Below the pieces are notes generated by a model. It searched no databases. It was not told the origin of the DNA and saw only the letters and a program-made list of their open reading frames with translations. DNA of 64,000 bases from Pseudomonas protegens (GTDB taxonomy: Bacteria > Pseudomonadota > Gammaproteobacteria > Pseudomonadales > Pseudomonadaceae): contig NZ_CP060201.1 of NCBI RefSeq assembly GCF_013407925.2, positions 4,697,001 through 4,761,000 of the forward strand, given 5' to 3'. Shown one piece after another: positions 36,883-55,443 of this stretch (positions are counted from its first letter, which is position 1; the number at the start of each line of letters is the position of its first letter). Both the position numbers and the translations under genes were made by a program.

Positions 36883-36909
36883 GCCAAGCCTCAAACGGAT
36901 AGATTTTCG

Positions 36910-36941
36910 CTTGCAGCTTGCAGCTTGCAGCTTGCAGCTTG
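36910..36941. repeat. Tandem 7-bp repeat
   Basis: TTGCAGC occurs four times in a row from 36911, then TTG. It lies in the spacer between the convergent hydrolase and response-regulator genes. Copy number is probably variable between strains. Confidence 0.85.
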
Positions 36942-36946
36942 TCGCG

Positions 36947-38341
36947 TCAGCGAACGATCTTGTCCACCTGAATGCCGAGCTTTTTCAGGCGGTACCAGAA
37001 GCTGCGCTCGGAAATGCCGATCATCTGCGCCGCCGCGGCCTGAACGCCATTGCTCTGCTGAAGGGCCGCGAGGATGTAGCTGCGTTCCACCTCCGCCAGG
37101 GCTGCGTCCAGGTCGCTGGGCACAGGCGCATTGACGCCGAGGAGGGGGCGGCCTTCGGCTCCCGCCGGCGGGGTGTCGAACAGATAGCCTGGCAGGTCGC
37201 TCTCCTCGATGACCGAGGCGCGAGCGACGATGGTGGCGCGCTCCACGCAGTTCTGCAGTTCGCGAATGTTGCCCGGCCAGGCGTAGCTGGCCATGGCCTG
37301 CAGCGCCTGCGGGCTGAAGCCGGTGATGCGCTTGCCGGCGGCGCCCAAGCTGTGGGCGAAGTGGCGGGCCAGCGGGGCGATGTCTTCGACCCGTTCGCGC
37401 AGCGCCGGCAGGGGAATGGGAAACACGTTGAGGCGGTAGTACAGGTCTTCGCGGAACTCCTTGTTGGCCACCGCTTCCAGCAGGTTCTTGTTGGTCGCGG
37501 CGATCACCCGCACGTCGACCTTGCGCTCCCGCGGATCGCCCACCGGCTCGATCACCCGCTCCTGCAGGGCGCGGAGAATCTTGGCCTGCAGGGCCAGGGG
37601 CATGTCGCCCACTTCGTCGAGGAACAGGGTGCCCTTGTCGGCCTGCTGAAAGCGCCCGATGCGGTCGGCCACGGCGCCGGTGAAGGCGCCCTTGCGATGG
37701 CCGAACATCTCGCTTTCCAGCAGGCCCTCGGGAATCGCCGCGCAGTTGACCGCGACAAACGGCTTGTCGGCGCGATTGCCGTGCTTGTGGATGGCCCGGG
37801 CGACCATTTCCTTGCCGGTGCCGCTTTCGCCGGTCAGGAGAATGGTGGCATTGCTGTCGCGCACCGAGTCCACCGCCTGCAGCACCCGGCGAAAGGTCGG
37901 GCTGTCGCCCACCAGGCTGTCGAACTGCTGGTGTTCGTCGAGTTCGGCGCGCATGCGCTGGTTGTCTTTGAGAATGTCGCGAAACTGCAGGGCCTTGCTG
38001 ACGGTGATGTCCAGCTCGTCGATATCGAACGGCTTGGCGATGTAGTCGTAGGCGCCGTTGCGCATGGACTGCACGGCGTTCTTCACCGTGCTGTAGGCGG
38101 TCATCACGATCACCGGCAGGTTCGGGTAGCGCTGCTTGATTTCCCCCAGCAACTGCGGCCCGTCCATGCCCGGCATGCGCCAGTCGCTGATCACCAGGTC
38201 GATGTCCTCCTGCTCCAGCACCTTGAGGGCGTGCAGGCCGTTGCTTGCGGTGAACACCTGAATGCCGTCCTGGCTCAGGGCCGAGGACAGCAGGTCGCAG
38301 AGTTTCGGTTCGTCGTCGACCACCAGCAGGTTATGCGTCAT
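36947..38341 (-). CDS. Sigma-54-dependent response regulator (NtrC family, MifR-like)
   Basis: 464 residues from the ATG at 38341, overlapping the kinase gene by 11 bases. Receiver at 1-120 with LVVDDEPKLCDLL, phospho-Asp in VISDWRMPGMDG and Lys in YIAKPFD. AAA+ domain at about 140-370 with Walker A GESGTGKE, an intact GAFTGA loop in GHRKGAFTGAVAD, and Walker B GTLFLDEVGDM. The C-terminal Fis-type helix-turn-helix ends RSFWYRLKKLGI. It activates sigma-54 promoters after phosphorylation. It resembles MifR of P. aeruginosa, but the gene context differs. It is the last gene of the operon whose promoter at 44238 is sigma-54 type, so it probably activates its own operon. Confidence 0.92.
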   Translation of the reverse strand: MTHNLLVVDDEPKLCDLLSSALSQDGIQVFTASNGLHALKVLEQEDIDLVISDWRMPGMDGPQLLGEIKQRYPNLPVIVMTAYSTVKNAVQSMRNGAYDYIAKPFDIDELDITVSKALQFRDILKDNQRMRAELDEHQQFDSLVGDSPTFRRVLQAVDSVRDSNATILLTGESGTGKEMVARAIHKHGNRADKPFVAVNCAAIPEGLLESEMFGHRKGAFTGAVADRIGRFQQADKGTLFLDEVGDMPLALQAKILRALQERVIEPVGDPRERKVDVRVIAATNKNLLEAVANKEFREDLYYRLNVFPIPLPALRERVEDIAPLARHFAHSLGAAGKRITGFSPQALQAMASYAWPGNIRELQNCVERATIVARASVIEESDLPGYLFDTPPAGAEGRPLLGVNAPVPSDLDAALAEVERSYILAALQQSNGVQAAAAQMIGISERSFWYRLKKLGIQVDKIVR

Positions 38342-40103
38342 CACTGTCCTCGTCGTCCTCTTCACCGTTGGCCGGAATGTACAGGCTGAAGGTGGCGCCG
38401 GCATCTTTTTCGCTGACGCACTCGATATGGCCGTCATGGCTTTCCATGATCGAGAAGACTTTAGCCAAGCCCAGGCCGGTGCCCGAGGCCTTGGTGGTGA
38501 CGAATGGGGTGAAAATGCGCTCCAGCATGTCCGGCTCGATGCCCTGGCCGGTGTCGCTGACGCTGATGATGGTTTCGTCGTTCTGCTGGGCGATGCCCAG
38601 GGTCAGGCGGCCGCCTTCGGGCATGGCGTCGATGGCATTGAGGATCAGGTTCAGGCAGGCCTGCTTGAGCTGCCGGGCGTCGGCGTGGATGGTCGCGCCG
38701 GGGGCCTGGTCGTCGATGCGCGCATCGATGTTGTGGGTCGCCAGTTCCGGGGTGCAGAAGCCCAGCAATTCCTCCAGCAAAGGGCGCGCCGGCTGGGTGG
38801 CGCGGATCGGCGCGCTGGGCTTGGCGAAGTCGAGGAACTCGGTGATCAGGTCATTGATCCGGCTGACTTCGCTGATCACGTATTCCAGGTGGCGCTTGTC
38901 GTTTTCCGGCAGGTTGGCCCGGCGGTGCAGCAGTTGGGTGGCGGTCTTGATGATGCCCAGGGGGTTGCGGATCTCGTGGGCCAGGCCCATGGCCACTTCG
39001 CCCAGGGCGTGCAGGCGGTCCCGGCGACGCAGTTGGGCTTCCAGGTGCTGCAGTTCGCCGAGGCGTTCGGTCATGTGGTTGAAGGTGCTGCTCAGCTCCG
39101 CCAGTTCGTCGCCGCCGATCACCGGCACCCGTTGCCGGTAGTCGCCGGCAATCACCGCCTGGACGCCCTTGGACAGGCCCCGCAGCGGCCGGGTCAAGCG
39201 TTGCGACACCAGCCAGCCGACGCACAGCGAGGCCGCCGAGCTGAGGAGAAAGATCAGGATGAACAGGTTGCTCTGGTTGACCAGGCCCACCAGGCTGCTG
39301 TGACGCAGCAAGCCGCTGAAAATCACCCCCACCAGGTCACCGCTGTCATTGAAGATCGGTCGGTACAGGCCGCTGTAGCGGCTGGTGAACTGTTCGGTGG
39401 GCTGGCGCGTGGCGCGCAGGATGTCTTCGATCTTGTGCGGCACCCGCGCAGGGTGATCCTCGAAGCGCTGGGTGGCGAAGATCTCGGAGAAGTCATCGGC
39501 CTTGGCCAGGTACAGGCGCAGGTCCAGGGAATGCACATCGGCCACGCTGGTGAGGAAGCTGGCGTCCAGGTAGGTGGCGATCAACAGCTGATAGTCGACG
39601 CCGTCCAACTGGGTCTGGAAGGTCGAGACCACCGCCCCGGTGGCGACACCGCCAACCTGGATGGTCTGCAGCACGGCATTGGAGGCGGTGCTGATCTGCC
39701 CCACCACGTCGTCGGCGGCGGTGGTGAACATCACTTTGTGGTCGTTCTTGCGAATCAGTGCCACCACGTCGATGCCCATGGAGTCGGCGATGTCGGCGGT
39801 GAGCTTGTCGTGCTTGGCCGCATTGCGATCGGTGGGCGGGCGGGTGTAGCGCAGGAACAGCTGGGCGATCCGTGCGTTGTCACGCAGGATCTCGGTGATC
39901 TCGTCCTCGACGATCTTGGTGGATTCCTGCAGCCAGATCCGCACGTTGCTGTCGAAGATTTCCGACAGCGTGGTGGCCGCCAGCTCAGCCGCGATCATGG
40001 TCGGGATCACACTGACCAACCAGAAGGCCAGCACCAGCTTGCGCTGCAGGCTCCAGCGGGAGATGGCGAAGGGGCGAGGCGAGCGACGATCTTTTCTGGT
40101 CAT
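38331..40103 (-). CDS. Sensor histidine kinase, cognate to the adjacent sigma-54 regulator
   Basis: 590 residues. Two membrane helices (about 23-43 and 270-290) enclose a periplasmic sensor of about 225 residues of dCache-like length. HAMP follows at SQRLTRPLRGLSKGV. The H-box is GEVAMGLAHEIRNPLG (His near 378). N-box NLILNAIDAMPEGG and G-boxes DTGQGIEPD and GTGLGLAKVF are all present. A very acidic tail (EEDDEDSDDA) ends the protein. Its stop overlaps the regulator start by 11 bases and its start overlaps the GNAT stop by four, so the two-component pair is coupled to four metabolic genes. The ligand is unknown. Confidence 0.92.
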   Translation of the reverse strand: MTRKDRRSPRPFAISRWSLQRKLVLAFWLVSVIPTMIAAELAATTLSEIFDSNVRIWLQESTKIVEDEITEILRDNARIAQLFLRYTRPPTDRNAAKHDKLTADIADSMGIDVVALIRKNDHKVMFTTAADDVVGQISTASNAVLQTIQVGGVATGAVVSTFQTQLDGVDYQLLIATYLDASFLTSVADVHSLDLRLYLAKADDFSEIFATQRFEDHPARVPHKIEDILRATRQPTEQFTSRYSGLYRPIFNDSGDLVGVIFSGLLRHSSLVGLVNQSNLFILIFLLSSAASLCVGWLVSQRLTRPLRGLSKGVQAVIAGDYRQRVPVIGGDELAELSSTFNHMTERLGELQHLEAQLRRRDRLHALGEVAMGLAHEIRNPLGIIKTATQLLHRRANLPENDKRHLEYVISEVSRINDLITEFLDFAKPSAPIRATQPARPLLEELLGFCTPELATHNIDARIDDQAPGATIHADARQLKQACLNLILNAIDAMPEGGRLTLGIAQQNDETIISVSDTGQGIEPDMLERIFTPFVTTKASGTGLGLAKVFSIMESHDGHIECVSEKDAGATFSLYIPANGEEDDEDSDDA

Positions 40104-41227
40104 GTACTTTCGCTTATTGCAGCAGCCATGGCGGGGTCGGAGCGATCCGGGCGGACAAAGCGTTTTATCACTTTGAGCAGGGCGTTGAGCAACGGATTGC
40201 GGTGGCGGAAAAACAGCATGTTACCGGTGAAGCGGCAACCCAGGCGCAGTTTGCTGGCATAGCCCGCCTGGCCGCACTCGTAGAGCGGAATCCGTTGCTG
40301 GATGCAGAAGTCGACATTGGCCAGCCAGCTGCGGAAATACAGGTTGTGCTCGCGACTGACATTGAGGTCGTGGGCAAAGAACTTGTCGATCAGCCGATGC
40401 TGGTCGATGAGGATCAGGTTGAACGCCACCAACTGCTCGCCGACCCAGTACAGGACGCAGGCGGCACGCTCGCCCAACTGCTCGAGGATCGCCGTGAAGT
40501 AGTCCGCCGGCAGGCGTTCGAACTGCAGGTCGCTGCGATTCAGGGTGGCTTCGTACAGGCGCATGATGTCCGGCAGCACGTCGTCGATCTGCCGCCGCCA
40601 TTCGATGCGCGGTGCCGGAGCCCGGAGCTTGCGCCGCAGGTCCTTGCGGGTGGATTTGCCCAGGGTGCCCAGGTACGCGTCGATCGAGGCGAAGGGCACG
40701 GGCAGCAACGCGGTGGGCAGGCTGGGCATGGCTTGCAGGCCGGCGGCCAGGCAGCTGTCGGCCCATTGCTGGTCGTGGCTGGGGGCATCCTTGACCGCCA
40801 ACAGGCCGATGCCAAAGCTGTCGGCGTCGCGCCGGGCCAGTTTCAGCAGTTCTTCGAGCAAGGCCTGACGACGCTGGGGCGGGACGTGGCTGGCGGTGCC
40901 GGCGTTGCACTGTTCGGCCACCGGCGAGCCGATGGCGTACAGGCGCAGTTGCAGGACACCGGGCCACTGGCGCTCCAGGCGTTCGGTAAAGCGTTTGGCC
41001 AGCCCTGACACCGTGGTGTCGAGCCGGTACTGGGTGGTGAAGGCCGGGGCCACCGCCACCAGGGTCGAGCCCTCGAAGACCGCCAGGTAGCGCCACTGAA
41101 AGTCGGCAATGGCGGCTTTTTCCACGGCCAGGTAGTAATCCCAATCCTCCAGGGCCCCCGGAAAACAGTCATTCCAGGCACTGCGTTCGATGGCCTGTAT
41201 GGTTGAAAAGGCTTGGGCGGTAATCAC
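40100..41227 (-). CDS. GNAT/FemAB-like acyltransferase (cyanophycinase-type peptidyl transferase fold)
   Basis: 375 residues from a GTG at 41227 with AAGGA six bases upstream; no ATG is better placed. The C-terminal half resembles the second GNAT domain of FemAB-like proteins (VGEQLVAFNLILIDQHRLIDK, then VDFCIQQRIPLYECGQAGYASK). Such proteins attach an amino acid or acyl group to an amine, using acyl-CoA or aminoacyl-tRNA. It overlaps the kinase start by four bases and begins 14 bases after the hydrolase stop. The position within a pathway operon makes it a likely bond-forming step. Substrates are not known. Confidence 0.75.
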   Translation of the reverse strand: MITAQAFSTIQAIERSAWNDCFPGALEDWDYYLAVEKAAIADFQWRYLAVFEGSTLVAVAPAFTTQYRLDTTVSGLAKRFTERLERQWPGVLQLRLYAIGSPVAEQCNAGTASHVPPQRRQALLEELLKLARRDADSFGIGLLAVKDAPSHDQQWADSCLAAGLQAMPSLPTALLPVPFASIDAYLGTLGKSTRKDLRRKLRAPAPRIEWRRQIDDVLPDIMRLYEATLNRSDLQFERLPADYFTAILEQLGERAACVLYWVGEQLVAFNLILIDQHRLIDKFFAHDLNVSREHNLYFRSWLANVDFCIQQRIPLYECGQAGYASKLRLGCRFTGNMLFFRHRNPLLNALLKVIKRFVRPDRSDPAMAAAISEST

Positions 41228-41241
41228 GTCTCTTCCTTAAG

Positions 41242-42108
41242 TCACGCCAGCTGTCGGTAGTCTTCACGTTCGGCGGGTTGGGTCACTCGTTGCTGGATGA
41301 AGTCGACGCTTAGCTCGATCACCCGCTGGTACTGCAGGTCCACGGTGATCATGTGATAGCAGTTGTCGAGGAGGATCTTGGTCACCGGTCCGCCGAGCTT
41401 GCGCTCCACGTAGTTGGCGTTCCAGGGACTGGTGATGTCGTCCTCGCTGGAGTGCAGCACCAGGGCCGGGGTCATGATCGAGGGCATGCGTTTCTTGACT
41501 ACGGCGTTCATCCGATGCAACTCGCGCACCGTCACGCCCTCCATGGTCAAGAGGCCCGCGTCGCTGCTCTGGCCGGCTTTCATCTGCTTCTCGACGATGG
41601 CCCGCAGGCGTTCGTTCTTGATGCCGTAGGGCGGTTTCTCTTCGAAACGGCAGATGTGCACGCCAAAGGGAATCTTCATCAGCAGCGGCGTGAGGAACGC
41701 CAGCTTGTTGATGCTCCAGCCGTCGTACTTGAGGGTGGTGGAGTACATCAGCAGGCCGCTGATCTGCCCCGGATGCTCGGAGGCCAGGTACATGGACATC
41801 ACCGCGCCCATGGACAGGCCGCCGACGAACACCTGCTCGTGACGCTGCTGCACGCCGACAAAGGTTTGGCGCACGCCTTCGTACCAGTCCTGCCAGCCGG
41901 TGGCCTGCAGGTCGCTGTTGTCCCCGCAGTGCCCGGGCAGGGTCGGAACGTACACCGTGCACGTCCCGTCCTTGGCCAGGCCCTGGGCCACCCGACGGAG
42001 TTCCGTCGGGGTGCCGGTCAGGCCGTGGATCAACAAGACCCCGACCGGACCCGTGCCGAGAACGAAGCCGGCGTCGCCTTCGCCCAGATCGATCTCAGCG
42101 GCGCTCAT
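41242..42108 (-). CDS. Alpha/beta hydrolase, carboxylesterase type
   Basis: 288 residues. Oxyanion region VLLIHGLTGTPTELR, nucleophile elbow GGLSMGAVMS (Ser near 99), acid in VLHSSEDDITSP and His in LDNCYHMITVD. The family includes monoacylglycerol-lipase-like and carboxylesterase YvaK-like enzymes and is cytoplasmic. Its start overlaps the aminotransferase stop by four bases. In this operon it could release, cyclise or de-esterify an intermediate. Confidence 0.85.
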   Translation of the reverse strand: MSAAEIDLGEGDAGFVLGTGPVGVLLIHGLTGTPTELRRVAQGLAKDGTCTVYVPTLPGHCGDNSDLQATGWQDWYEGVRQTFVGVQQRHEQVFVGGLSMGAVMSMYLASEHPGQISGLLMYSTTLKYDGWSINKLAFLTPLLMKIPFGVHICRFEEKPPYGIKNERLRAIVEKQMKAGQSSDAGLLTMEGVTVRELHRMNAVVKKRMPSIMTPALVLHSSEDDITSPWNANYVERKLGGPVTKILLDNCYHMITVDLQYQRVIELSVDFIQQRVTQPAEREDYRQLA

Positions 42109-43499
42109 CGCTTCATGGCCCGATCCAGCAGGCGGTCCAGCAGAGCGATGCCCAGGTCGATTTCCGCGTAGCTGATTTCCAGCGACGGGGCCAGGGTGAT
42201 GACGTTCTTGTAGTAGCCGCCCACATCGAGGATCAGGCCCAGGCGCTGGCCGTTGATTTCGATGTCGCCCTTCATGCCTTCCTCGACCATGAAGTCCAGG
42301 GTCGCCTTGTCCGGGGTGAAGCCGTCGGTGGTGCAGATTTCGCAGCGCAGGGCCAGGCCCAGGCCGTCGACGTCGCCGATGATCGGGTAGCGCTTCTGCA
42401 GGTCTTGCAGGCCGGCCAGGAAGTACTTGCCCTTTTCCATGACCATCGCGCCGTAGTCGATCTCGCTGGTCATCTTGAACATTTCCAGGCCCACGGCGGT
42501 GCCCAGCGGGTTGGAGGCGAAGGTGGAGTGGGTCGAACCTGGCGGGAACACGCCCGGGTTGATCAGCTCTTCACGGGCCCAGATGCCGCCCAGCGGGTTG
42601 AGGCCGTTGGTCAGCGCCTTGCCGAACACGATCACGTCGGGTTTGACGTCGAAGTGCTCGATCGACCACAGCTTGCCGGTGCGGTAGAAGCCCATCTGGA
42701 TTTCGTCCACCACCAGCAGGATGCCGTGCTGGTCCAGCACATGCTTGAGCTCGCTGTAGAAGTTCATCGGCGGGATCACGTAGCCGCCGGTGCCCTGGAT
42801 CGGCTCGACATAGAAGGCGGCGTATTCGCTCTGGCCGACTTTCGGGTCCCATACGCCGTTGTATTCGGTTTCGAACAGGCGGGCGAACTGCTGCACGCAA
42901 TGGCTGCCGTACTCTTCCTTGGTCATGCCTTTAGGACCGCGGAAGTGGTACGGGAACGGGATGAACTGCGCGCGCTCGCCGAAGTGGCCGTAGCGGCGAC
43001 GGTAGCGGTAGCTGGAGGTGATCGACGAGGCGCCCAGGGTACGACCGTGGTAGCCGCCTTCGAAGGCGAACATCAAGCTCTTGCCGTTGGTGGCGTTACG
43101 CACCACTTTCAGTGAGTCCTCGACCGACTGCGAACCGCCGACGTTGAAGTGCACGCGACCGTCCAGGCCGAACTTCTTCTTGGCGTCCACGGCGATCATT
43201 TCCGACAGTTCGATCTTGCCTTTGTGCAGGTACTGGCTGGCGATCTGCGGCAGGGTGTCGATCTGTTGCTTGAGGGCATTGTTCAGGCGCGGGTTGGCGT
43301 AGCCGAAGTTCACCGCCGAGTACCACATCTGCAGGTCGAGGTAAGCCTGGTCGCTGGTGTCCCAGACATAGGAGCCTTCGCAGCGGCTGAAAATGCGCGG
43401 TGGTTCGATGTAGTGAACGGTATCGCCGTAGGAGCAGTACTTGGCTTCTTTTTCCAGAAGGATCTGGTCTTCTGGGGTCGCGATGCGGATATCAGACAT
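42105..43499 (-). CDS. Class III aminotransferase
   Basis: 464 residues from the ATG at 43499 (MSDIRIATPEDQILLEKEAK). The PLP fold is clear: GGSQSVEDSLKVVRNATN, then FEGGYHGRT, VVDEIQMGFYRTGKLW and the PLP lysine in VIVFGKALTNGLNP. The family moves an omega- or alpha-amino group between an amine donor and a keto acceptor. The protein is cytoplasmic. Its start overlaps the HAD gene end by eight bases, and its stop overlaps the hydrolase start by four. It is probably the amino-group step of the operon's pathway. Confidence 0.92.
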   Translation of the reverse strand: MSDIRIATPEDQILLEKEAKYCSYGDTVHYIEPPRIFSRCEGSYVWDTSDQAYLDLQMWYSAVNFGYANPRLNNALKQQIDTLPQIASQYLHKGKIELSEMIAVDAKKKFGLDGRVHFNVGGSQSVEDSLKVVRNATNGKSLMFAFEGGYHGRTLGASSITSSYRYRRRYGHFGERAQFIPFPYHFRGPKGMTKEEYGSHCVQQFARLFETEYNGVWDPKVGQSEYAAFYVEPIQGTGGYVIPPMNFYSELKHVLDQHGILLVVDEIQMGFYRTGKLWSIEHFDVKPDVIVFGKALTNGLNPLGGIWAREELINPGVFPPGSTHSTFASNPLGTAVGLEMFKMTSEIDYGAMVMEKGKYFLAGLQDLQKRYPIIGDVDGLGLALRCEICTTDGFTPDKATLDFMVEEGMKGDIEINGQRLGLILDVGGYYKNVITLAPSLEISYAEIDLGIALLDRLLDRAMKR

Positions 43500-44187
43500 G
43501 GTGGAAGAGTTCCTGGGTTTCAAGAGAGAAATTGGTCGCGTTGGCGGCGTTGTTCGGCAGCTTGGCCAGCAGCGCCGGCAGTTCGGCGAAGGAGTCGAAC
43601 CGCGCATGGGGAATCTTGTTGCGTTCGCAGTAGTCGGCCAGGCGGTCCTTGGCGAACACGAAGTCGGCGGTGGACGCCACGCACATATCCGACTGGCCGT
43701 CGCCGATCACCAGCACGCGCTTGCCGCGCGGGGTGGACTTGCATTTGCAGTTGCCGGAAGCAGCGCGGCAGGCGTCGCTGGCGTAGGGGAAGTCGATGCG
43801 CCAGCTGTTGTGGTCAACCTGGCGCAGGCGGTTGGCGAGGATCGGCAGCAGGGTCACGTAGTTGCGTGCCAGGATGCGGGCGATGCCTTGTTCGATGCCG
43901 TCGCTGACCACTTCGATGGAAGCGCCCAGGCCGATCACGTGATCGACGAAGTCGGGGAAGTCGGGGTCGATTTCGACACTGTCGAAGTAGCCCAGCAGTT
44001 CGGCGGGCGAAGCCTTGACCAGGGCCAGTTGGCGGCTGAGGCATTCACGGGAGCCGATGTGACCGTCCAGCCATTCCTGCTCGATGCCTTCCCAGCTCGG
44101 GTCGGCGAAGCGTTGGAGAACGTTATCGATCACGTCGGCGCGGGAGATGGTCCCGTCGAAGTCACATACGATATGCCAGTGCATCAT
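43492..44187 (-). CDS. HAD-family (MtnX/SerB-like) phosphatase
   Basis: 231 residues. Motif I is CDFDGTISRADV (Asp nucleophile and second Asp), motif II is in VVSDGIEQGI and motifs III/IV are in VLVIGDGQSDMC. This is the HAD-IB arrangement of phosphoserine phosphatases and MtnX. A Cys-rich insertion (ACRAASGNCKCKS) near residue 140 is unusual. ATGs at 44187 and 44184 are both possible. It is the first gene of the six-gene operon and lies about 50 bases downstream of a sigma-54 promoter. It likely removes phosphate from an early intermediate. Confidence 0.9.
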   Translation of the reverse strand: MMHWHIVCDFDGTISRADVIDNVLQRFADPSWEGIEQEWLDGHIGSRECLSRQLALVKASPAELLGYFDSVEIDPDFPDFVDHVIGLGASIEVVSDGIEQGIARILARNYVTLLPILANRLRQVDHNSWRIDFPYASDACRAASGNCKCKSTPRGKRVLVIGDGQSDMCVASTADFVFAKDRLADYCERNKIPHARFDSFAELPALLAKLPNNAANATNFSLETQELFHHV

Positions 44188-44237
44188 CTGCTGTTACCTG
44201 TTGAATAAGAGCGCTGCTTGCGCTTGTGGCAGGGGTA

Positions 44238-44255
44238 GAGCAGGGACTGTGCCAA
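44238..44255 (-). promoter_or_regulatory. Sigma-54 promoter of the six-gene operon
   Basis: On the minus strand TTGGCACAGTCCCTGCTC contains GG and GC exactly 10 bases apart, with TGGCAC at -24 and TGC at -12. It lies 51 bases upstream of the HAD start. The operon itself encodes a sigma-54 activator. Confidence 0.82.
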
Positions 44256-44304
44256 GTGGGGAAAACCCAGCAGGGCCGGGGCTCTGGCCGCAGGGGGAAG
44301 TGAT

Positions 44305-44343
44305 TTGTAGCTTTCTGGCTACAATTTTTGTAGCTTGCTACAA
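44305..44343. promoter_or_regulatory. Two inverted repeats, candidate enhancer sites (TTGTAGC / GCTACAA)
   Basis: TTGTAGC-N6-GCTACAA (44305-44324) and TTGTAGC-TT-GCTACAA (44328-44343) have centres 21 bases apart, two helical turns. They lie about 88 and 109 bases upstream of the expected sigma-54 transcription start, the usual place for activator binding. They also lie 75-110 bases upstream of the divergent MipA-type gene. Confidence 0.75.
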
Positions 44344-44416: not shown

Positions 44417-45187
44417 ATGCCTAGGCTTTCTCTTCCCGCCATACTGGCCGGCCTGCTCTCGCTGGGCGCGGCAATGGGCGCCGCCGCCGACTCCGGCATC
44501 ACCGGTGAACTGGGCCTTGGCCTCGGTTACCAGCCCCACGACCCGACCGGCAGCAGCTACGACACGGTGCCGCTGCCTTATATGGATCTGGAATGGGGCG
44601 ATGTCAGCCTGAGCACCGACGACGGCCTGACCTGGAGTGCCTTCAAGGCCAATGGCTTGAGCGTCGGTCCCTATGTCAATTACCTGCAGGGGCGCAACGC
44701 CGACGGCAAGCTGCGCGGCTTGCGGGACGTGCGCGACATGGCCGATATCGGCGGATTCGTCGAGTACGCTCCGGATGACTTCTGGCGACTGTTCGCCACC
44801 CTCGGCCAGGCGGTCGGCGGGGCCGGTGGCCAGGGCGGCCTGCTGGGCAAGCTCGGCGGCGAGATCGGCTATCCCCTGGGCATGGGCATCATCGGCAGCA
44901 ACGAATTGACCCTGCACTTTGCCGACGACCGTCAGGCCAATACCTTCTATGGCGTCAGCGCCAAAGAGTCCCTGGCCTCCGGTATCGACCGCTACAACGC
45001 TGGCGCTGGCCTGCAGAACTTCACCCTGAGCCAGAGCTTCCAGTTCCCCTTGGGGGACAACTGGTCGCTGGTGGCCAGCGCCAGCTGGATCCGTCTGGTC
45101 AATTCCGCCGCGGACAGCACCATCGTTCGCGATCGGGGCGAGGTCAACCAGGGCCAAGTGCAGACCGCCATCAGCTACAAGTTCTGA
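44417..45187 (+). CDS. MipA/OmpV-family outer-membrane protein
   Basis: 256 residues from the ATG at 44417 with AAGGAAAC upstream. A signal peptide ends at AAADSG. The mature protein is a small beta barrel with GELGLGLGYQPHDPTGSSYDTVPLPYMDLEWGDVSL-type start (only the first part is diagnostic) and a C-terminal Phe (TAISYKF). MipA in E. coli links MltA and PBP1B; OmpV-type members act as porins or stress proteins. It is divergent from the six-gene sigma-54 operon and shares its control region, so it may carry that pathway's compound across the outer membrane. Confidence 0.85.
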   Translation: MPRLSLPAILAGLLSLGAAMGAAADSGITGELGLGLGYQPHDPTGSSYDTVPLPYMDLEWGDVSLSTDDGLTWSAFKANGLSVGPYVNYLQGRNADGKLRGLRDVRDMADIGGFVEYAPDDFWRLFATLGQAVGGAGGQGGLLGKLGGEIGYPLGMGIIGSNELTLHFADDRQANTFYGVSAKESLASGIDRYNAGAGLQNFTLSQSFQFPLGDNWSLVASASWIRLVNSAADSTIVRDRGEVNQGQVQTAISYKF

Positions 45188-45289: not shown

Positions 45290-46156
45290 ATGGCCCGACC
45301 CGCCTACCGTCTGCTTGCCCATTCCCTCTGGGACCTGATCCCGATTGCCATGGCCCTGGCGCATTTCGCCTTTGTCCTGTGGCTGGTGCTGGACTTTCAC
45401 GCCCTGTCCTGGTGGGTCATTCTCCCGGCGGCGCTGCTGTACGCGGTCAGCCTGTCGTGGAGCATCAACAGCATTTCCCACAATCAGATCCATAACGCCT
45501 ACTTCACCCCGGGATGGATGAACCGCGCCTTCGATCTGCTGCTGTCGGTGACCATCGGTTTTTCCCAGACCCTGTACCGCGACATCCACAACCGCCACCA
45601 CCGTGGCAACTCCGATCGTCCCGATGCCCAGGGCAAGACCGTGGACCCGCTGTCGATCTACCTGCACGGCAAGAATGGCCAGCCGGACAATCCCTGGGCC
45701 TACACCTTCCTGAGCTTCTTTCGCGACGATCCCAAGGAGATCTACCAGGAAATGCAGCGCAAGCGGCCTGACGATGCACGCTGGGTCAAGGTGGAAATCG
45801 GCGTCACCGTGGCCTTCTACCTGGCCCTGGCGCTGTATGACTGGCACGCGGTGCTGGTGCTGCTGCCGTTCTGGTACCTGGGGCAATCGCTGTCGTCCCT
45901 CAACGGCTACTACGAGCACCTGGGGGGCAACCCCGACCTGCCGATTGCCTGGGGCGTGAGCTCCTACAGCCCGCTGTACAACCTGATCTGGATGAACAAC
46001 GGCTACCACGCCGAGCATCACTACCGGCCGAAAATGCACTGGACCAAGGTCAAGGCCTTCCACCGCGAGATTCGCGAGCAGCAGCAGGCGGCGGGGGTAA
46101 AAGTGATTCCCGTGTCCCATGGCCTGGGCTTCCTGGTAGCCCACCGCAAGGCCTGA
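45290..46156 (+). CDS. Fatty acid desaturase (membrane di-iron)
   Basis: 288 residues. All three His boxes of the membrane desaturase/hydroxylase family are present: HNQIHN near residue 66, HNRHH near 101 and HAEHH near 240. About four to five helices. The protein places a double bond or hydroxyl in an acyl chain or related substrate at the inner membrane. In the absence of acyl-CoA or carrier genes nearby, the substrate is open. Upstream genes are on the same strand, but a hairpin lies between. Confidence 0.9.
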   Translation: MARPAYRLLAHSLWDLIPIAMALAHFAFVLWLVLDFHALSWWVILPAALLYAVSLSWSINSISHNQIHNAYFTPGWMNRAFDLLLSVTIGFSQTLYRDIHNRHHRGNSDRPDAQGKTVDPLSIYLHGKNGQPDNPWAYTFLSFFRDDPKEIYQEMQRKRPDDARWVKVEIGVTVAFYLALALYDWHAVLVLLPFWYLGQSLSSLNGYYEHLGGNPDLPIAWGVSSYSPLYNLIWMNNGYHAEHHYRPKMHWTKVKAFHREIREQQQAAGVKVIPVSHGLGFLVAHRKA

Positions 46157-46424: not shown

Positions 46425-46826
46425 TCAGGCCTCTTCACCTTCCGCCAGCAGGGCAATCCCGCCGATGATCACGAAGACGCCGATCCAGTGCAGCAGGCTG
46501 ATCTGTTCACCCAGGCCCAGCCACGAGCCCAGCAGCACCACGACAAACACCAGGGAACTCAAGGGGAAGGCCAGGGACAGGCTGCTGCGACGCAGGATCA
46601 GCATCCACACGAAAAACGCGCCGATGTAGCAGGCAATCGCCAGCAGCACGCCCGGATTGACCGCCACCGCCGCCAGCCATTGCAGGTTGAAATCCATCTG
46701 CCCCAATTGGTCGCCGCCGACCTTGGTGGCGATCTGCCCGGCGCTCTCGAAGCCGATCAGCAGGGCCCAGAGCACGATGGTGCCCAGACGCTCGTGCAGC
46801 CAGCCGTGGGAGGTGTTCGAACTCAT
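46425..46826 (-). CDS. Small four-helix transporter subunit (EamA/SMR type), second of a pair
   Basis: 133 residues with four membrane helices. The layout is that of half-size EamA or SMR proteins: a Glu in the first helix (LWALLIGFESAGQIATK), then the PLSSLVFVVVLLGSWLGLGE core. These normally work as dimers or as heterodimers when two genes are adjacent, as with ArnE/ArnF and the paired SMR exporters. Its partner ends 31 bases upstream. The cargo is unknown. Confidence 0.82.
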   Translation of the reverse strand: MSSNTSHGWLHERLGTIVLWALLIGFESAGQIATKVGGDQLGQMDFNLQWLAAVAVNPGVLLAIACYIGAFFVWMLILRRSSLSLAFPLSSLVFVVVLLGSWLGLGEQISLLHWIGVFVIIGGIALLAEGEEA

Positions 46827-46857: not shown

Positions 46858-47232
46858 TCAGGTACTGGCCACGCAGACCAGCATCACCCCGGCGGTGATC
46901 ACCAGGGTGCCCAGCCAGCGCCGGCGGCTGACGGTCTCGCCCAGCACCACCTTGCCCGCCAGGACCACCCCGCAATAGGCCAGGGCCGCGGCCGGGAACA
47001 ACAGGCTCAGGGGCGCCCGGGACAGGGCTTCGAGCCAGACGAAGAACTCGATGGCGTAGGCGCCGATGCCGCACCACAGCAGGGGTGCGTTGAACACCTG
47101 GCCCCAGAAGGCATTCAGGCGAAAGCCGCCTTCCAGCTCTGGCAGGCGGTCGAGGCCTAGCTTGAAACAGAGTTGGCCGACCACGTCCAGGACAATCGAA
47201 AAGGCCACCAGCAGAACTACGGTCAGGGTCAC
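46858..47232 (-). CDS. Small four-helix transporter subunit (EamA/SMR type), first of a pair
   Basis: 124 residues from a GTG at 47232 that shares four bases with the stop of the arginase-like gene (GTGA). Four helices; the helix-1 motif VAFSIVLDVVGQLCFKLGL and the helix-3/4 part RAPLSLLFPAAALAYCGVV match half-size EamA proteins. With the following gene it probably forms a heterodimeric inner-membrane exporter. Tight coupling to an enzyme gene suggests the exporter handles the enzyme's product or substrate. Confidence 0.82.
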   Translation of the reverse strand: MTLTVVLLVAFSIVLDVVGQLCFKLGLDRLPELEGGFRLNAFWGQVFNAPLLWCGIGAYAIEFFVWLEALSRAPLSLLFPAAALAYCGVVLAGKVVLGETVSRRRWLGTLVITAGVMLVCVAST

Positions 47233-48149
47233 GGAAACAGCTCCTCGAACAGCGATATCAGGGCTTCATTGGTCACTGAGTTGCGCAGCAGGTCGTCCTG
47301 GCTCCAGCGTTCGGCCGGGGGCTGGTCGGACTTGGCTTCCCAGCGTTTGAAGGCGTTGCTGAAGGCCGGCTGGGCGAACTCGCCGCAGACGTCGATGCCC
47401 AGGATGCGCTTGCGCGCCGCCAGTGCGCGCAGTGCCTGCAGCAGGTGGGTCAGGCGCATGCCGCCCTGGTCCCAGTTGGTGGCAGCGTCTTCGCTGGCCA
47501 GCACGTCCTTGTCGATGGTGATCCACACCGCTTCGGTGGGCAGGCTGTCGATCATCTGCGCGAGGAAGGTGGCCCAGTCCAGGTCCGCCAGATTGCGCCA
47601 GTGCAGGTGGTTTTCCTGCTGTTGATGACCGGCGCCGTCGCCGACCCGGCCCCAGACCTTGGACGGCGCGTGCTGCCAGGGAAACAGCTGCAGCTTGCCG
47701 TGCTTCAGGGCGCCGAGGTTGCCGCCGCGCAGCTGCGGATTGTGCAAGTCCTCACTGCACGGGCCCAAGGTGACGATGCGCTGGATATTGGGCAGCTGCA
47801 ACGCCCGGTTGACCCAGGAACCGCAGTGCCGGCGCGGGGCGAAGCGCACCCAGTCGGGGTGATTGTCGAAGTGGATCAGGCTCACCGGCTCGGGCAGGTC
47901 GCACAGAAAGGCCGGAGTCAGGTGATGATAGTCGCCGGAGCCGACAAAGAAGATTTCCGGTTGCGGGCCGCTGTGCCGGGGACGTTGACCCAGGCGCTCG
48001 CGAAAATGGCGATAGGTGCGCTCGGTGGACCAGAGGCGCAGCTTGGGGCCCAGGTCCAGCAGGTCCAGGCGTCGCGCCTGGCCGCTTTTCAGGCGCCGGA
48101 GGATGGGCTCCTGGGCGGTCAGGCTGTGGTCGAGATCTAAAATATTCAA
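47229..48149 (-). CDS. Arginase/ureohydrolase-fold protein
   Basis: 306 residues from a TTG at 48149. Metal-ligand motifs of the ureohydrolase fold are present in altered form: VSLIHFDNHPDW (replacing DAHxD) and AVWITIDKDVLASEDAATNW (replacing SxDxDxxDP). Sequence between is not close to true arginases or agmatinases, so the substrate may differ. The start is uncertain: a strong GGAGGG precedes an ATG at 48164-48162 that is out of frame with the rest, and only the TTG gives the continuous frame. It overlaps the first transporter gene by four bases. A three-gene enzyme-plus-exporter unit is the likely arrangement. Confidence 0.75.
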   Translation of the reverse strand: MNILDLDHSLTAQEPILRRLKSGQARRLDLLDLGPKLRLWSTERTYRHFRERLGQRPRHSGPQPEIFFVGSGDYHHLTPAFLCDLPEPVSLIHFDNHPDWVRFAPRRHCGSWVNRALQLPNIQRIVTLGPCSEDLHNPQLRGGNLGALKHGKLQLFPWQHAPSKVWGRVGDGAGHQQQENHLHWRNLADLDWATFLAQMIDSLPTEAVWITIDKDVLASEDAATNWDQGGMRLTHLLQALRALAARKRILGIDVCGEFAQPAFSNAFKRWEAKSDQPPAERWSQDDLLRNSVTNEALISLFEELFP

Positions 48150-48671: not shown

Positions 48672-49993
<1,322 letters not shown>

Positions 49994-49997
<4 letters not shown>

Positions 49998-51895
49998 ATC
50001 GGCTCGGCTTGAGTGGGGCTTGCCAGGGGCAAGCTGAGGACAAAGGCGGTGCCGCCGCTTGCCGGGTGTTCCACCCCCAGGCTGCCGCCGGTGGCGGCGG
50101 CGAGGCTCGCGGACAGGGTCAGGCCGAGGCCCAGGCCTTGCTCGCCGGGTTTGGTGGTGAAGAAGGGTTCGAACAGGTGCTTGCGCGCCTCAAGATCAAT
50201 GCCGTGGCCGTTGTCGCGGACCCGCAGGCGGTACTTGCCGTCGCCGGGTTCGCCTTCCAGCCACAGTTCCGGCGCCGGCTGGGCCTGCATGGCGTCCAGG
50301 GCGTTGCCGATCAGGTTGACCAGGATCTGTTCCAGGCGGGTCTGGTCGATCTGCAGGGTCTGTTCGCTGAAGTCGCGGTGCAGTTGCAGGGGCAGGGGTT
50401 CGATACGGGCGTTGAGAATCTGCAGCGCGGCGTCCACCGCCTTGTCCAGGCTGGCCTGGCCCTGGTCGTCGCCACGGCGGGCGAAGGCGCGCAGGCTGGC
50501 GGTGATGCGCCCCATGCGGTCGATCAGTTCGTTGATGGTCTTGAGGTTGGCGCTGGCGGTGTCCAGGGCGCCGCGCTCAAGAAAGCGCACGGTGTTGCCG
50601 GACAAGGTGCGCAGCGCCGCCAGGGGCTGGTTGAGTTCGTGGGCGATGCTGGTGGACATCTGGCCGATGGCCGCCAGCTTGCCGGCCTGGACCAGCTCGT
50701 CCTGGGCCCGGCGCAGGGTTTCCTCGGCCTGGCGGCGTTCGCGGATCTGGCTCTTGAGCCGCTCGTTGCTGGCCCGCAGGTCGGCGGTGCGCTCGGTGAT
50801 TCGTCGCTCCAGCTGGCTGTTGGCTTCCTGCAGGGCTTCACGGGCGGCCAGGCGCGTGGCGATGACCTTGCGCCGCTCGTTCCAGGCGATCAGCAAGAAG
50901 GCCACCAGGGCAAAGGCCACGGCCACCAGGATGCCCTGGTTGATGGCTTCGCGGCGCAGGTCCTGCAGCGGCGTGAGCAGGGTGAAATTCCACGGGGTGT
51001 CGCTCAGGGGCCGGGTCTGGGACAGGTAGCTGATGGCCTTGCCGTCGGATTCGAGTTCGGTGTTGGCGGGGAAGGTCAGTTTCTCCACGCCTTCGGCCAG
51101 GCGCTCGCGGGCCAGGGGTTCGAGTTCGTTGAGCGGGAACCAGTAGTACTGCAGGCTGCGGGCCAGGCGTTCCTTGGTGTCGTCGCTGAGCGGGCGGACC
51201 GACTTGAGTCGGCGCGCCGGATCGCTGGAGAGAATGATGATGCCGTTCTCGTCGCTGACGAAGGCTTCCAGGCGGGCGCGCTGCCAGCGTTCCTCCAGGG
51301 CTTCCAGGCGCACCTTGACCACCGCCACGCCGATGATCTTGCCTTGCTCTTCCAGGCCGTGGGCCAGGTAATAGCCGGGCTCGCCGTTGGTGCTGCCGAT
51401 GCCGTAGAAGCGTCCGGGCTGGCCGCGCACGGCGTTCTGGAAGTAGGCGCGAAACGACAGGTCCTCACCCAGGTAGCTGTCGACGTCGCGCCAGTTGCTG
51501 GTGGCCAGCACCCGGCCGGTGGTGTCCATGACATAGATGGCCCGGCTGCGACTGCGGCGGTTCAGGCCTTCGAGGTACTGATTGACGGTTTGCCGGTGTT
51601 CCGGCGAGGGATCGTCCAGCAAGCGCGAGACACTGGATTCCAGTTCCAGCAGGCTGGGCAGATAGGTGTATTTGCTGATCTCGCTTTCTACGGCGCGGGC
51701 GTGCAGTTCCAGCTGGCGTTCGCCATTTTCGCTGAGGGTGCGGATGCCGTTGTGTTCGCTGACCCAGAAGCCGATGTAGCCCAGGCCGATCATCAGCAGG
51801 ATGACCAGGGGCGGCAGGAACAGTTGGCGGATCAGACGGGGTTTCACGGCAAGTGATGGCGGCGCGGCGCGATAGAGAGAGGGGTCGCATTTCAT
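49994..51895 (-). CDS. aauS: Sensor histidine kinase for acidic amino acids
   Basis: 633 residues from the ATG at 51895; a GTG three bases earlier is also in frame. DctB-like: helix at about 25-45, a double-Cache periplasmic domain (GFWVSEHNGIRTLSENGERQ, then AIYVMDTTGRVLATSNW), a second helix near 310-330, a coiled coil at about 340-400 and the kinase core. The H-box is GQMSTSIAHELNQPLA; N-box LVNLIGNALDAMQ; G-boxes RDNGHGID and GLGLGLTLS. It should sense glutamate or aspartate directly and pass phosphate to AauR. A REPIN separates it from aatP. Confidence 0.93.
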
Positions 51896-51919
51896 CACAG
51901 ATGCCTTGGGTCAACCAGC

Positions 51920-52048
51920 GTGGCGAGGGAGCTTGCTCCCGCTCGGCTGCGAAGCAGTCGCGGACCGCCCATGCGTGTCTCGGGTAGCACGCATGGGGCG
52001 GTTTTGCGGTCGCTGCGCGACCCTGCGGGAGCAAGCTCCCTGGCCACA
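51920..52048. repeat. REPIN between aauS and aatP
   Basis: GTGGCGAGGGAGCTTGCTCC at the left and its inverted partner at the right flank an interior with a second hairpin (CCGCCCATGCGTG / CACGCATGGGGCGG). It belongs to the same family as the REPINs beside the RAYT gene. It may set the level of aauS relative to aatP. Confidence 0.9.
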
Positions 52049-52071
52049 AGGGTCAGCACAGCGCTAGCGGC

Positions 52072-52806
52072 TTAGTGCTGCAGGATCTTCTCGAGGAAGT
52101 GCTGGGCACGTTCGGAACGGGCGCTGATATCGCCGAAGAATTCTTCTTTCTGGCAGTCTTCGATGATCTGGCCCTTGTCCATGAAGATCACCCGGTTCGC
52201 CACTTTGCGGGCAAAGCCCATTTCGTGGGTCACGCACATCATGGTCATGCCTTCCTGGGCCAGTTGCACCATCACGTCCAGCACTTCATTGACCATTTCC
52301 GGGTCCAGGGCCGAGGTCGGTTCGTCGAACAGCATGACGATCGGGTCCATGGCCAGGGCGCGGGCGATGGCCACACGCTGTTGCTGGCCACCGGAGAGCT
52401 GGCCCGGGTGCTTGTGGGCATGGGCGGCGAGGCCAACCCGATCCAGCAGTTGCAGGCCTTTCTTGGTGGCCTCTTCCTTGCTGCGGCCCAGGACCTTGAT
52501 CTGCGCGATGGTCAGGTTTTCGGTGATGGTCAGGTGCGGGAACAGCTCGAAATGCTGGAACACCATGCCGACGCGAGAGCGCAGTTTCGGCAGGTTGGTC
52601 TTCGGGTCGGCAATCGAGGTGCCATCGACCACGATGTCGCCCTTCTGGAAGGGTTCCAGGGCGTTGACGCACTTGATCAGGGTCGACTTGCCGGAGCCGG
52701 ATGGCCCGCAGACCACCACCACTTCACCCTTTTTGACCTCGGTGCTGCAATCAGTCAGCACCTGGAAGTCCCCATACCACTTGTTGATGTTCTTGATAGA
52801 GATCAT
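52072..52806 (-). CDS. aatP: Glutamate/aspartate ABC transporter ATPase
   Basis: 244 residues. Walker [10 protein letters not shown], signature LSGGQQQR, Walker [13 protein letters not shown] and the H-loop VTHEMGFA are all intact. It powers the AatQM permease. Its start overlaps the AatM stop by four bases (ATGA). Highly similar to GltL/PeaT-type polar amino acid ATPases. Confidence 0.95.
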
Positions 52807-53474
52807 ACGGCGAACCTTTTTTGCAGACGCTTGACCAGCAGCGAGGCGGCAAAGCTGATTGTGAAATAGACCAGACCAGCGATGATCAGGAATTCATTGG
52901 AGCGGCCGATGATGTCGCCGCTGGAACGCGAGGCGTTGAGGAAGTCCACCAGGCCCACGGTGTACACCAGGGAGGTGTCCTGGAACAGGATGATGCTCTG
53001 CTGCAGCAGCAGCGGGGTCATCTTGCGGAACGCCTGGGGCAGGATGATCAGGCGCATGGTCTGGCCGTAGCTCATGCCCAGTGCCTGGGCGGCGCCCATC
53101 TGGCCCTTGGGAATGGACTGCACGCCGGCGCGGACGATTTCGCAGAAGTACGCCGCTTCGAACATCATGAAGGCCACGATGCACGAGGTGAACGCGCCGA
53201 TCGGCGTGTCTTCGCCGGTGATCCAGCGCAGCACGAACGGCACCGCCAGGTAGAACCAGGTGATCACCAGCAGCAGCGGGATCGAGCGGAAGTAGTTGAC
53301 GTAGGCGCCGGCCAGGTTCGACAGCAGCTTGTTGTGGGACAAGCGCATCAAGGCCAGCAAGGTGCCGAGGATGATCCCGCCAACCACGCCCATGACCATC
53401 AGCTTGAGGGTCATCAGCATGCCGTTCCACAGACCGGGAATGGCCGGGATGATGCCCGAGAAGTCGAATTCCAT
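52803..53474 (-). CDS. aatM: Glutamate/aspartate ABC transporter permease (M subunit)
   Basis: 223 residues, five helices. The EAA-loop region is [21 protein letters not shown]. Its ATG shares one base with the AatQ stop (TAATG). It pairs with AatQ to form the inner-membrane channel. Confidence 0.94.
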
Positions 53475-54220
53475 TATTTACCTCCCACGGAGATCAGGCC
53501 GGGGACCGAGACTTTCTTCTCCACCAGGCGCATCAGCAGCATCAGGCTCATGTTCAAGGTGAAGTAGATCAGGGTGGCCAGGGTGAAGGCTTCGAACAGG
53601 TTGGCCGAGAACTCGGCGGTCTGTTTGGTCTGGGCCAGCAATTCCATCAAGCCGATCAGGGACGCCACGGAGGAGTTCTTGAAGACGTTGAGAAATTCCG
53701 AGGTGAGCGGCGGAATGATGATCCGGTAGGCCTGGGGCAGCAGCACGTTCCAGTAGATCTGCGGCAGCGAGAAGCCCATGGCGCGGGCGGCGGATTCCTG
53801 GCCGCGGGGCAGCGCCTGGATGCCGGTACGAACCTGTTCGCAAACCCGCGCAGCGGTGAACAGGCCCAGGCACACGACGACGCTCAGGTAGGCCGAGGTG
53901 GTCGGATTGAGGTCCTGCTTGTACCACTCCTGGAGGTTGGCCGGCAGCAGGTCCGGTACCAGGAAGTACCAGATGAACAGCTGCACCAGCAGCGGCACGT
54001 TACGGAAGATCTCCACGTAGACCGTGGCAATGCCCGACACCAGACGGTTCGGCACGGTGCGCATGACGCCCAGGATCGAGCCCAGCAGCAGCGCAATGAT
54101 CCAGGCCACCACGGCGATGGCGATGGTCCAGCCCAGGCCGGAGATGAACCAGTCGAGATAGGTCTCGCTGCCCACGCCGGTGGACTTGAAGAACACGCCC
54201 CAGTCCCAGTTGTAATTCAT
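53474..54220 (-). CDS. aatQ: Glutamate/aspartate ABC transporter permease (Q subunit)
   Basis: 248 residues, five helices. The EAA-loop region is GIQALPRGQESAARAMGFSLPQ. It is the first permease gene after the binding-protein gene. A hairpin in the 192-base gap before it may reduce expression relative to aatJ. Confidence 0.94.
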   Translation of the reverse strand: MNYNWDWGVFFKSTGVGSETYLDWFISGLGWTIAIAVVAWIIALLLGSILGVMRTVPNRLVSGIATVYVEIFRNVPLLVQLFIWYFLVPDLLPANLQEWYKQDLNPTTSAYLSVVVCLGLFTAARVCEQVRTGIQALPRGQESAARAMGFSLPQIYWNVLLPQAYRIIIPPLTSEFLNVFKNSSVASLIGLMELLAQTKQTAEFSANLFEAFTLATLIYFTLNMSLMLLMRLVEKKVSVPGLISVGGK

Positions 54221-54366
54221 TAGGGTTACCCCTCAGATCGTTCGATGTACAAGCACCCGCCTGGGGACGTCCGTTCCCGCCTGATCATGACGATCAGGCA
54301 CACGCGATCGGCTCGACAACCACCGGTTCGAGTGTTTCCAAAAAAATGCCAGCAGGTAGTGACAGA

Positions 54367-54395
54367 CTCCCGAAGGGGCGGCGCCCCTTCAGGAG
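54367..54395 (-). terminator. Intra-operon hairpin between aatJ and aatQ (attenuator candidate)
   Basis: CTCCCGAAGGGGC and GCCCCTTCAGGAG pair over 13 positions with one mismatch and a three-base loop. It could stop part of the transcription or protect aatJ mRNA ends, giving more binding protein than permease. No T-run is present. Confidence 0.65.
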
Positions 54396-54412
54396 ATAAG
54401 GTTAGTCAGGAA

Positions 54413-55327: not shown

Positions 55328-55443
55328 CAATATTTCCTCGACATTTGTTTTTTTTATGAAGCCAGTTCGACGGCTCTTTTATACAGCGAATGCCTTGACG
55401 GCTCCTGTTGTGTTGGCACGACAGGCATTCGTCGCACAGTGTA

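What the first reader, a model, noticed from the sequence alone, without database searches (positions are those of the whole stretch)
36947..44343. Six-gene, self-regulated sigma-54 operon of unknown product
Seen: HAD phosphatase, class III aminotransferase, alpha/beta hydrolase, FemAB-like GNAT, histidine kinase and sigma-54 activator lie on one strand with overlaps of 8, 4, 4 and 11 bases and one 14-base gap. A GG-N10-GC sigma-54 promoter (44238-44255) precedes the first gene. Two TTGTAGC/GCTACAA inverted repeats lie at about -88 and -109, with centres 21 bases apart. Known: NtrC-type activators bind such sites. Inference: the operon makes and senses its own small molecule, with dephosphorylation, transamination, acyl transfer and ester cleavage steps. 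I recognise no described pathway with this gene set.
Basis: partly seen in the sequence, partly recalled or inferred. Interest (0 to 1): 0.82.

Follow-up and report, generated by a model that had tools for sequence, protein, structure and literature searches.

The report
Sigma-54-controlled amine-lipid gene cluster
A soil bacterium carries a widely shared set of genes, for which I found no description, that looks built to make and move an amine-bearing lipid-like compound and that it switches on with its own dedicated sensor and a conserved DNA switch.

Summary
Six genes (HAD phosphatase, class III aminotransferase, alpha/beta hydrolase, FemAB-like GNAT, histidine kinase, NtrC-type regulator) overlap as stated behind a sigma-54 promoter that is present in 64 of 65 Pseudomonas-type loci. 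The kinase's sensor domain occurs in exactly the 10 of 57 related genomes that have the aminotransferase orthologue.

A MipA barrel, a desaturase, two ArnE/F-like transporters and an arginase-fold enzyme lie beside it; most recur with it in rhizobia, Bosea, Bartonella and Xanthomonas relatives, often under another regulator or none.

Best reading: synthesis and export of an amine-bearing lipid or lipid-like envelope compound. The GNAT models like FemX/MprF, the hydrolase resembles monoacylglycerol lipases, and fatty-acid enzymes and DevC-type exporters recur in other lineages. No metabolite is known. Self-sensing is not shown: the kinase stays in 12 of 13 Pseudomonas loci that lack the GNAT and arginase-fold genes. 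Six targeted literature searches found no description.

The parts
44239..44255 (-). sigma-54 promoter TTGGCAC-N5-TGCT
   Evidence: score 10 or more in 64 of 65 Pseudomonas-type loci
44318..44343 (-). enhancer TTGTAGC-N2-GCTACAA-N3-TTGTAGC (three half-sites; central palindrome 44318-44334)
   Evidence: exact central palindrome once in the genome
44305..44311 (-). fourth half-site GCTACAA, local to P. protegens and near relatives
   Evidence: exact in 3 of 64
43492..44187 (-). HAD-IB phosphatase, MtnX-like
42105..43499 (-). class III (omega-type) aminotransferase
41242..42108 (-). alpha/beta hydrolase, monoacylglycerol-lipase-like
40100..41227 (-). FemAB-like tandem GNAT, FemX/MprF-like fold
38331..40103 (-). 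histidine kinase with Cache-fold periplasmic sensor
36947..38341 (-). NtrC-type response regulator (receiver, sigma-54 AAA+, Fis HTH)
44417..45187 (+). MipA/OmpV-family outer-membrane barrel, divergent
45290..46156 (+). fatty acid desaturase family protein (optional member)
   Evidence: 9 of 56 Pseudomonas loci, 5 of 37 others
46425..46826 (-). EamA half-transporter, ArnF/ArnE-like (below cut-off)
46858..47232 (-). EamA half-transporter, ArnF-like (below cut-off)
47229..48149 (-). arginase-fold hydrolase

Best explanation
This is the Pseudomonas form of a conserved proteobacterial pathway that makes, and moves to the envelope or outside, an amine-bearing lipid or lipid-like compound. Shown by computation: the gene set, its recurrence, and the conserved regulatory sequences. 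Inferred: the chemistry and the signal. HAD phosphatase, omega-type aminotransferase and monoacylglycerol-lipase-like hydrolase form the core (phosphate removal, amination, acyl-ester or thioester cleavage). A FemX/MprF-like tandem GNAT and an arginase-fold hydrolase act as a coupled later step (acyl or aminoacyl transfer, and C-N hydrolysis). An ArnE/F-like EamA pair flips or exports the product. Desaturase, cyclopropane synthase, ketosynthase/ACP or DevC-type exporters are added in some lineages. In Pseudomonas a Cache-fold kinase senses a periplasmic small molecule or envelope state and phosphorylates the NtrC-type regulator, which binds TTGTAGC-N2-GCTACAA-N3-TTGTAGC and activates the single sigma-54 promoter from a fixed face of the DNA. 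HK and RR are the last genes behind that promoter, so the circuit probably feeds back positively on itself.
For: Regulation: promoter in 64 of 65 Pseudomonas-type loci, missing only in L066, which has no two-component genes. Outside Pseudomonas the promoter follows the regulator: 7 of 7 against 2 of 25 at score 10 or more, and in a 4-kb scan 6 of 7 against 0 of 27 at score 11 or more. Spacing to the promoter steps by helical turns in 70 of 71 loci. Sensor domain in the same 10 of 57 relatives as the aminotransferase orthologue, and in 13 of 398 genomes, 12 of them among the 26 with the aminotransferase. Pathway: HAD, AT and ABH in 56 of 56 Pseudomonas loci; the arginase-fold gene never without GNAT (35 loci with both, 0 with ARG alone in Pseudomonas; 27 and 0 in 37 others); ARG in 16 of 398 genomes, all within the 26. 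Lipid and export theme: hydrolase like monoacylglycerol lipase, GNAT like FemX/MprF, EamA pair nearest ArnF/ArnE, cyclopropane synthase, ketosynthase/ACP 7 and cyclopropane synthase 6 of 37 others, DevC-type permease in 12 of 110 loci searched.
Confidence: 0.5

Rival explanations
1. Self-sensing signal system: the enzymes make a diffusible amine-containing signal that the Cache kinase binds, giving quorum-like positive feedback.
For: Sensor and enzymes always occur together in the relatives searched. HK and RR lie in the operon they are predicted to activate. Cache-type folds include autoinducer-related receptors and CqsR with serinol or ethanolamine.
Against: 14 of 26 genomes with the aminotransferase lack the sensor. 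The sensor is kept in 12 of 13 Pseudomonas loci without GNAT and ARG. Regulators are exchanged between lineages. The fold match is tied among many receptors.
Confidence: 0.17
2. Catabolic operon: the sigma-54 system senses an external amine or amino alcohol, and phosphatase, aminotransferase, hydrolase and arginase-fold enzyme break it down.
For: Cache kinase with an NtrC-type regulator nearest AtoSC models is a common arrangement for nutrient sensing (established knowledge). Omega-aminotransferase and arginase-fold profile hits (agmatinase, guanidinobutyrase) are typical of amine catabolism.
Against: No uptake transporter or dehydrogenase recurs in the set; GNAT, desaturase, cyclopropane synthase, ketosynthase/ACP, ArnE/F-like pair and exporters point to synthesis.
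Confidence: 0.15
3. Antimicrobial-peptide or envelope-stress defence: the product is an aminolipid that lowers surface charge, with MipA as envelope sensor.
For: MipA family next to the cluster in 55 of 56 Pseudomonas and 8 of 37 other loci; a P. aeruginosa MipA binds polymyxins and helps signalling (PMC10936184, abstract and passages); ArnF-like EamA; MprF-like fold; eptA-dgkA beside one locus. It is a special case of the best explanation.
Against: MipA is absent from most non-Pseudomonas loci; eptA-dgkA in one locus only; no induction or susceptibility data; no MipB neighbour.
Confidence: 0.13
4. Secreted specialised metabolite (for example a modified amino acid or amino alcohol such as the rhizobitoxine type) rather than a lipid.
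For: Aminotransferase, phosphatase and desaturase together recall serinol-phosphate chemistry (PMC3222319 passages; analogy). GNAT fold hits include natural-product enzymes Sbb17/Sba18 and a clavulanic-acid GNAT.
Against: The desaturase is optional (9 of 56); no sulfhydrylase-like or assembly-line enzyme recurs in the clustered neighbours; lipid-related neighbours.
Confidence: 0.15

Closest known systems
MprF/FemX-type aminoacyl transferases and aminoacyl-phosphatidylglycerol systems (lpiA-acvB; search listing only)
   Different: 8-16% identity; no MprF membrane domain; extra aminotransferase, phosphatase and arginase-fold enzymes; by eye the window's hydrolase has no signal peptide, whereas AcvB is periplasmic.
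Arn (aminoarabinose-lipid A) pathway
   Same: A pair of small EamA proteins whose best curated match is ArnF/ArnE; an amination step; two-component control (PMC10936184 passages).
   Different: Scores below ArnE/ArnF cut-offs; no glycosyltransferase in the recurring set; the aminotransferase is class III (a DegT-type one recurs in 14 of 37 other loci only).
NtrC-family two-component systems (AtoSC and similar)
   Same: Sensor kinase plus receiver-AAA-Fis activator, sigma-54 promoter, palindromic enhancer.
   Different: Scores far below AtoS/AtoC cut-offs; own enhancer sequence; tied to this gene cluster.
P. aeruginosa MipA-MipB polymyxin sensors (PMC10936184, abstract and passages)
   Same: MipA/OmpV-family barrel in a two-component context.
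   Different: No MipB neighbour; sigma-54 control here instead of ParRS; response to polymyxin untested.
Rhizobitoxine rtxA/rtxC (PMC3222319 passages)
   Same: Aminotransferase making a phosphorylated amino alcohol, dephosphorylation, desaturation.
   Different: No sulfhydrylase-like part in the set; sequence relation not tested; analogy only.

Membership tests
Sigma-54-dependent (NtrC-type) two-component operon | Receiver, sigma-54 AAA+ domain with GAFTGA and Fis HTH, plus partner kinase | tested here: met
   Pfam domains above cut-off; GAFTGA read in the translation
Sigma-54-dependent (NtrC-type) two-component operon | -24/-12 promoter that goes with the regulator | tested here: met
Sigma-54-dependent (NtrC-type) two-component operon | Upstream enhancer in phase with the promoter | tested here: met
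   exceptions L136 (no site) and L084 (spacing 135)
Sigma-54-dependent (NtrC-type) two-component operon | Transcription lost without rpoN or the regulator | not testable with these tools
   needs an experiment
AtoSC | Score above AtoS/AtoC cut-offs | tested here: not met
   227.1 against 646 and 481.4 against 714 bits
MprF / aminoacyl-PG synthase | Tandem-GNAT catalytic fold | tested here: met
   model pLDDT 89.9; the fold is shared with other GNAT families
MprF / aminoacyl-PG synthase | MprF sequence family and membrane flippase domain in the same protein | tested here: not met
   Pfam gives FemAB_like and Acetyltransf_6 only at E 0.001; 375 aa, FemX-like model over residues 1-364
Arn pathway (ArnE/ArnF) | EamA pair above ArnE/ArnF cut-offs | tested here: not met
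   39 and 53.1 bits against 99; 36.8 and 37 against 92
MtnX phosphatase | Score above the MtnX cut-offs | tested here: not met
   88 against 303.2 and 103.9 against 292 bits
Arginase/ureohydrolase superfamily | PF00491 match and binuclear-metal ligand pattern | tested here: met
   33.6 bits, cut-off 22; invariant His/Asp pattern in 14 of 14 aligned sequences (ligand assignment recalled); the Bartonella member is just below the Pfam cut-off (19.4)
Self-sensing (quorum-type) system | The kinase responds to the operon's own product | not testable with these tools
   needs reporter and extract experiments

The most novel reading that the evidence does not exclude
The cluster makes an unknown class of amine-bearing lipid, shared by pseudomonads, rhizobia, Bartonella and xanthomonad relatives, that is both an envelope component and the ligand of a dedicated Cache kinase, so that the cell meters its own envelope lipid through an ancestral sigma-54 switch that several lineages later replaced with OmpR-type control.
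Probability: 0.13. Interest if true: 0.85.

Novelty: new variant of a known kind. Interest (0 to 1): 0.6.

Why it matters
A compact, highly conserved cluster found in plant-associated, insect-associated and soil Proteobacteria without a named product is a good place to look for a new envelope lipid or lipid-like metabolite. The work supplies a handle on it: one phased enhancer, exact only once in the genome, and one sigma-54 promoter that can be tested in a laboratory biocontrol species, plus natural variants (with and without GNAT and arginase-fold genes, under other regulators) that separate the steps genetically.

Tried and rejected
Other regulon members: no further exact site; degenerate matches are not above control (8 against 7 per strand; 11 against 31), so none is claimed. 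A sigma-54 promoter in the MipA direction: best score 9. Rhizobitoxine/serinol route: kept as analogy. MtnX, AtoSC and ArnE/F membership: below cut-off. Polymyxin-defence reading from eptA-dgkA: one locus of 110 searched. Phage-borne copies: no match at E 1e-80 in the phage collection. Solved structures related by sequence to ARG alone: none at E 0.01; the ARG profile finds agmatinases and arginases weakly. Literature: ten searches in an open-licence library; six aimed at this gene set gave no description (31 listed one paper on a tick symbiont, listing seen only); others were on analogues. Papers: PMC3222319 passages; PMC10936184 abstract, outline and passages; all others search listing only.

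Rows dropped: L044 and L078 (under 4,600 bases) were not in the promoter counts. Loci under 14 kb were not in the presence counts, because absence cannot be judged there. L093, L137, L146 and L147 were outside the 32-locus table. In several negative loci HAD is not the first gene, so a 4-kb scan was added, with L146 and L147 in it. The 'OmpR-type RR' count means a match within 9 kb, not always adjacent; four of these regulators were checked by Pfam. The four class means of the phasing test leave out L084; with L084 in, 12 distinct spacings give p 0.0008 at 10.5 bp. The tree test used 51 loci and the window, 19 of the Pseudomonas-type loci chosen by me.
Full report
What is there. The window lies in a Pseudomonas protegens-like chromosome (AT 99% identical to P. 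protegens FD6; G000 C1:4697001-4761000). All six genes are present with the stated overlaps. The aminotransferase starts at the ATG at 43499 and the regulator at 38341. Promoter and both inverted repeats are exact.

More than chance. A sigma-54 score of 10 or more was met by 64 of 65 Pseudomonas-type upstream regions (the window plus 64 of 66 such loci; two were too short) and by 4.0% of 4,040 Markov-resampled regions. The single miss, L066 of P. libanensis, is a second copy holding only HAD-AT-ABH, without HK, RR, promoter or repeats.

The enhancer re-read. De novo inverted repeats upstream of two Nevskia loci are GCTACAGAATTTGTAGC and GCTACAAAATTTGTAGC, and one Bosea locus has GCTCCAAAATTTGGAGC. 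Among 65 Pseudomonas-type regions it has 0 mismatches in 39, 1 in 24, 2 in 1 and 5 in 1 (L066). The 28 regions without an orthologous regulator in the locus all have 3 or more, and resampled regions reach 2 in 4 of 3,030. The outer left half TTGTAGC is exact in 60 of 64, the outer right half in 3 of 64. From this palindrome to the promoter the distance is 68-70, 78-81, 88-90 or 110 bases in 70 of 71 loci, steps of about one or two helical turns; L084 (135) is the exception. Related loci are not independent, so I rest this on the separate classes (four class means, Rayleigh p 0.016 at 10.5 bp; classes chosen after seeing the data).

Promoter follows regulator. Among 32 non-Pseudomonas loci of at least 14 kb with a HAD gene, score 10 or more was met by 7 of 7 with the orthologous regulator and 2 of 25 without (Fisher p 1e-5). 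In a 4-kb scan at score 11 or more it was 6 of 7 against 0 of 27. On an aminotransferase tree of 52 rows the regulator label needs 6 changes (4 forced by well-supported branches); the promoter never goes the other way, but the independent-pairs test is too small for significance. The regulator occurs in L149, in one of the two basal groups under midpoint rooting, and in Bosea, Nevskia and Pseudomonas, so an ancestral sigma-54 circuit with later loss or replacement is plausible (inference; rooting is arbitrary).

A dedicated sensor. The kinase's sensor profile hits 10 of 57 related genomes, exactly the 10 with an aminotransferase orthologue of 90% or more identity, each within 4 kb of it. In 398 genomes of the phylum it hits 13, of which 12 are among the 26 with the aminotransferase; the odd one, G421, is a weak partial hit. 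In four of the 12 (G406, G459, G463, G508) the two genes lie on different contigs, so adjacency is not shown there. Fourteen of the 26 lack the sensor. So the sensor goes with the pathway, but the pathway does not need this sensor. In six rhizobial records an OmpR-type pair sits directly before HAD (three of these regulators checked by Pfam); in three Agrobacterium records another pair is divergent from it. In a sample drawn evenly from the class only 3 of 274 genomes have the aminotransferase, so the cluster is scattered, not universal.

The pathway is larger than the finding. Beside the operon lie MipA, a desaturase, two EamA half-transporters and an arginase-family gene. In nine rhizobial plasmid records HAD-AT-arginase-EamA-(desaturase)-hydrolase-GNAT-EamA-(cyclopropane synthase) stand in one run, with MipA at the end in 6 of 9. 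Xanthomonas sacchari, Bartonella, Wohlfahrtiimonas and Rhodanobacter carry variants, with DegT, ketosynthase and ACP in some; Bartonella HY038 and HY328 plasmids carry only AT, GNAT and the arginase-fold gene together. In 56 Pseudomonas loci: HAD, AT, ABH 56; HK, RR, MipA 55; each EamA 46; GNAT 43; ARG 35; desaturase 9. In 37 others: AT 37, HAD 32, ABH 32, GNAT 28, ARG 27, EamA 26 and 25, OmpR-type RR within 9 kb 18, DegT 14, MipA 8, HK/RR 7, ketosynthase/ACP 7, cyclopropane synthase 6, desaturase 5. ARG never occurs without GNAT in either set. An ARG profile finds 16 of 398 genomes, all 16 among the 26.

Most likely working. An external or envelope cue activates the Cache kinase; the phosphorylated regulator on the three-half-site enhancer drives sigma-54 transcription of the enzymes and of itself; the enzymes produce an amine-bearing lipid or lipid-like compound, which the EamA pair (elsewhere perhaps DevC-type exporters) moves. 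I put about 0.9 on the regulatory reading and about 0.45 on a lipid or lipid-like amine; self-sensing gets 0.17. These are judgements, not computed values; the rivals overlap with the best reading.

Known or new. No paper describing this set was found in six targeted searches of an open-licence library; most subscription papers are not in it, so earlier description cannot be excluded. A profile search of a 5.8-billion-protein collection gave, among the 120 proteins listed of 3,733 matches, only generic or evidently stray names, mostly 'arginase'.

Noticed in passing
L066 8229-11258 and L077 (Pseudomonas libanensis DSM 17149): Two copies of the core in one genome: a full cluster with regulator (L077) and a solo HAD-AT-ABH trio without regulator, promoter or enhancer (L066); the trio may be the minimal unit.
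   Followed up: partly
L178 17336-19329 (Agrobacterium fabrum 2788 plasmid): A phosphoethanolamine-lipid A transferase gene and a diacylglycerol kinase gene directly follow the cluster; not matched in the other 109 loci searched.
   Followed up: partly
L043 4610-5704: A second, diverged GNAT homologue (39% to the window's GNAT) sits between the two EamA genes in P. putida 700447.
   Followed up: no
36908-36942: Short tandem repeat of CAAGCTG just after the regulator's stop codon.
   Followed up: no
48672-55330: A second sigma-54-type regulator with a kinase gene (Pfam for the regulator) and, beyond it, genes that look like an amino-acid ABC transporter (by eye); the pair lies beside the cluster in many Pseudomonas loci.
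   Followed up: partly
   Followed up: partly
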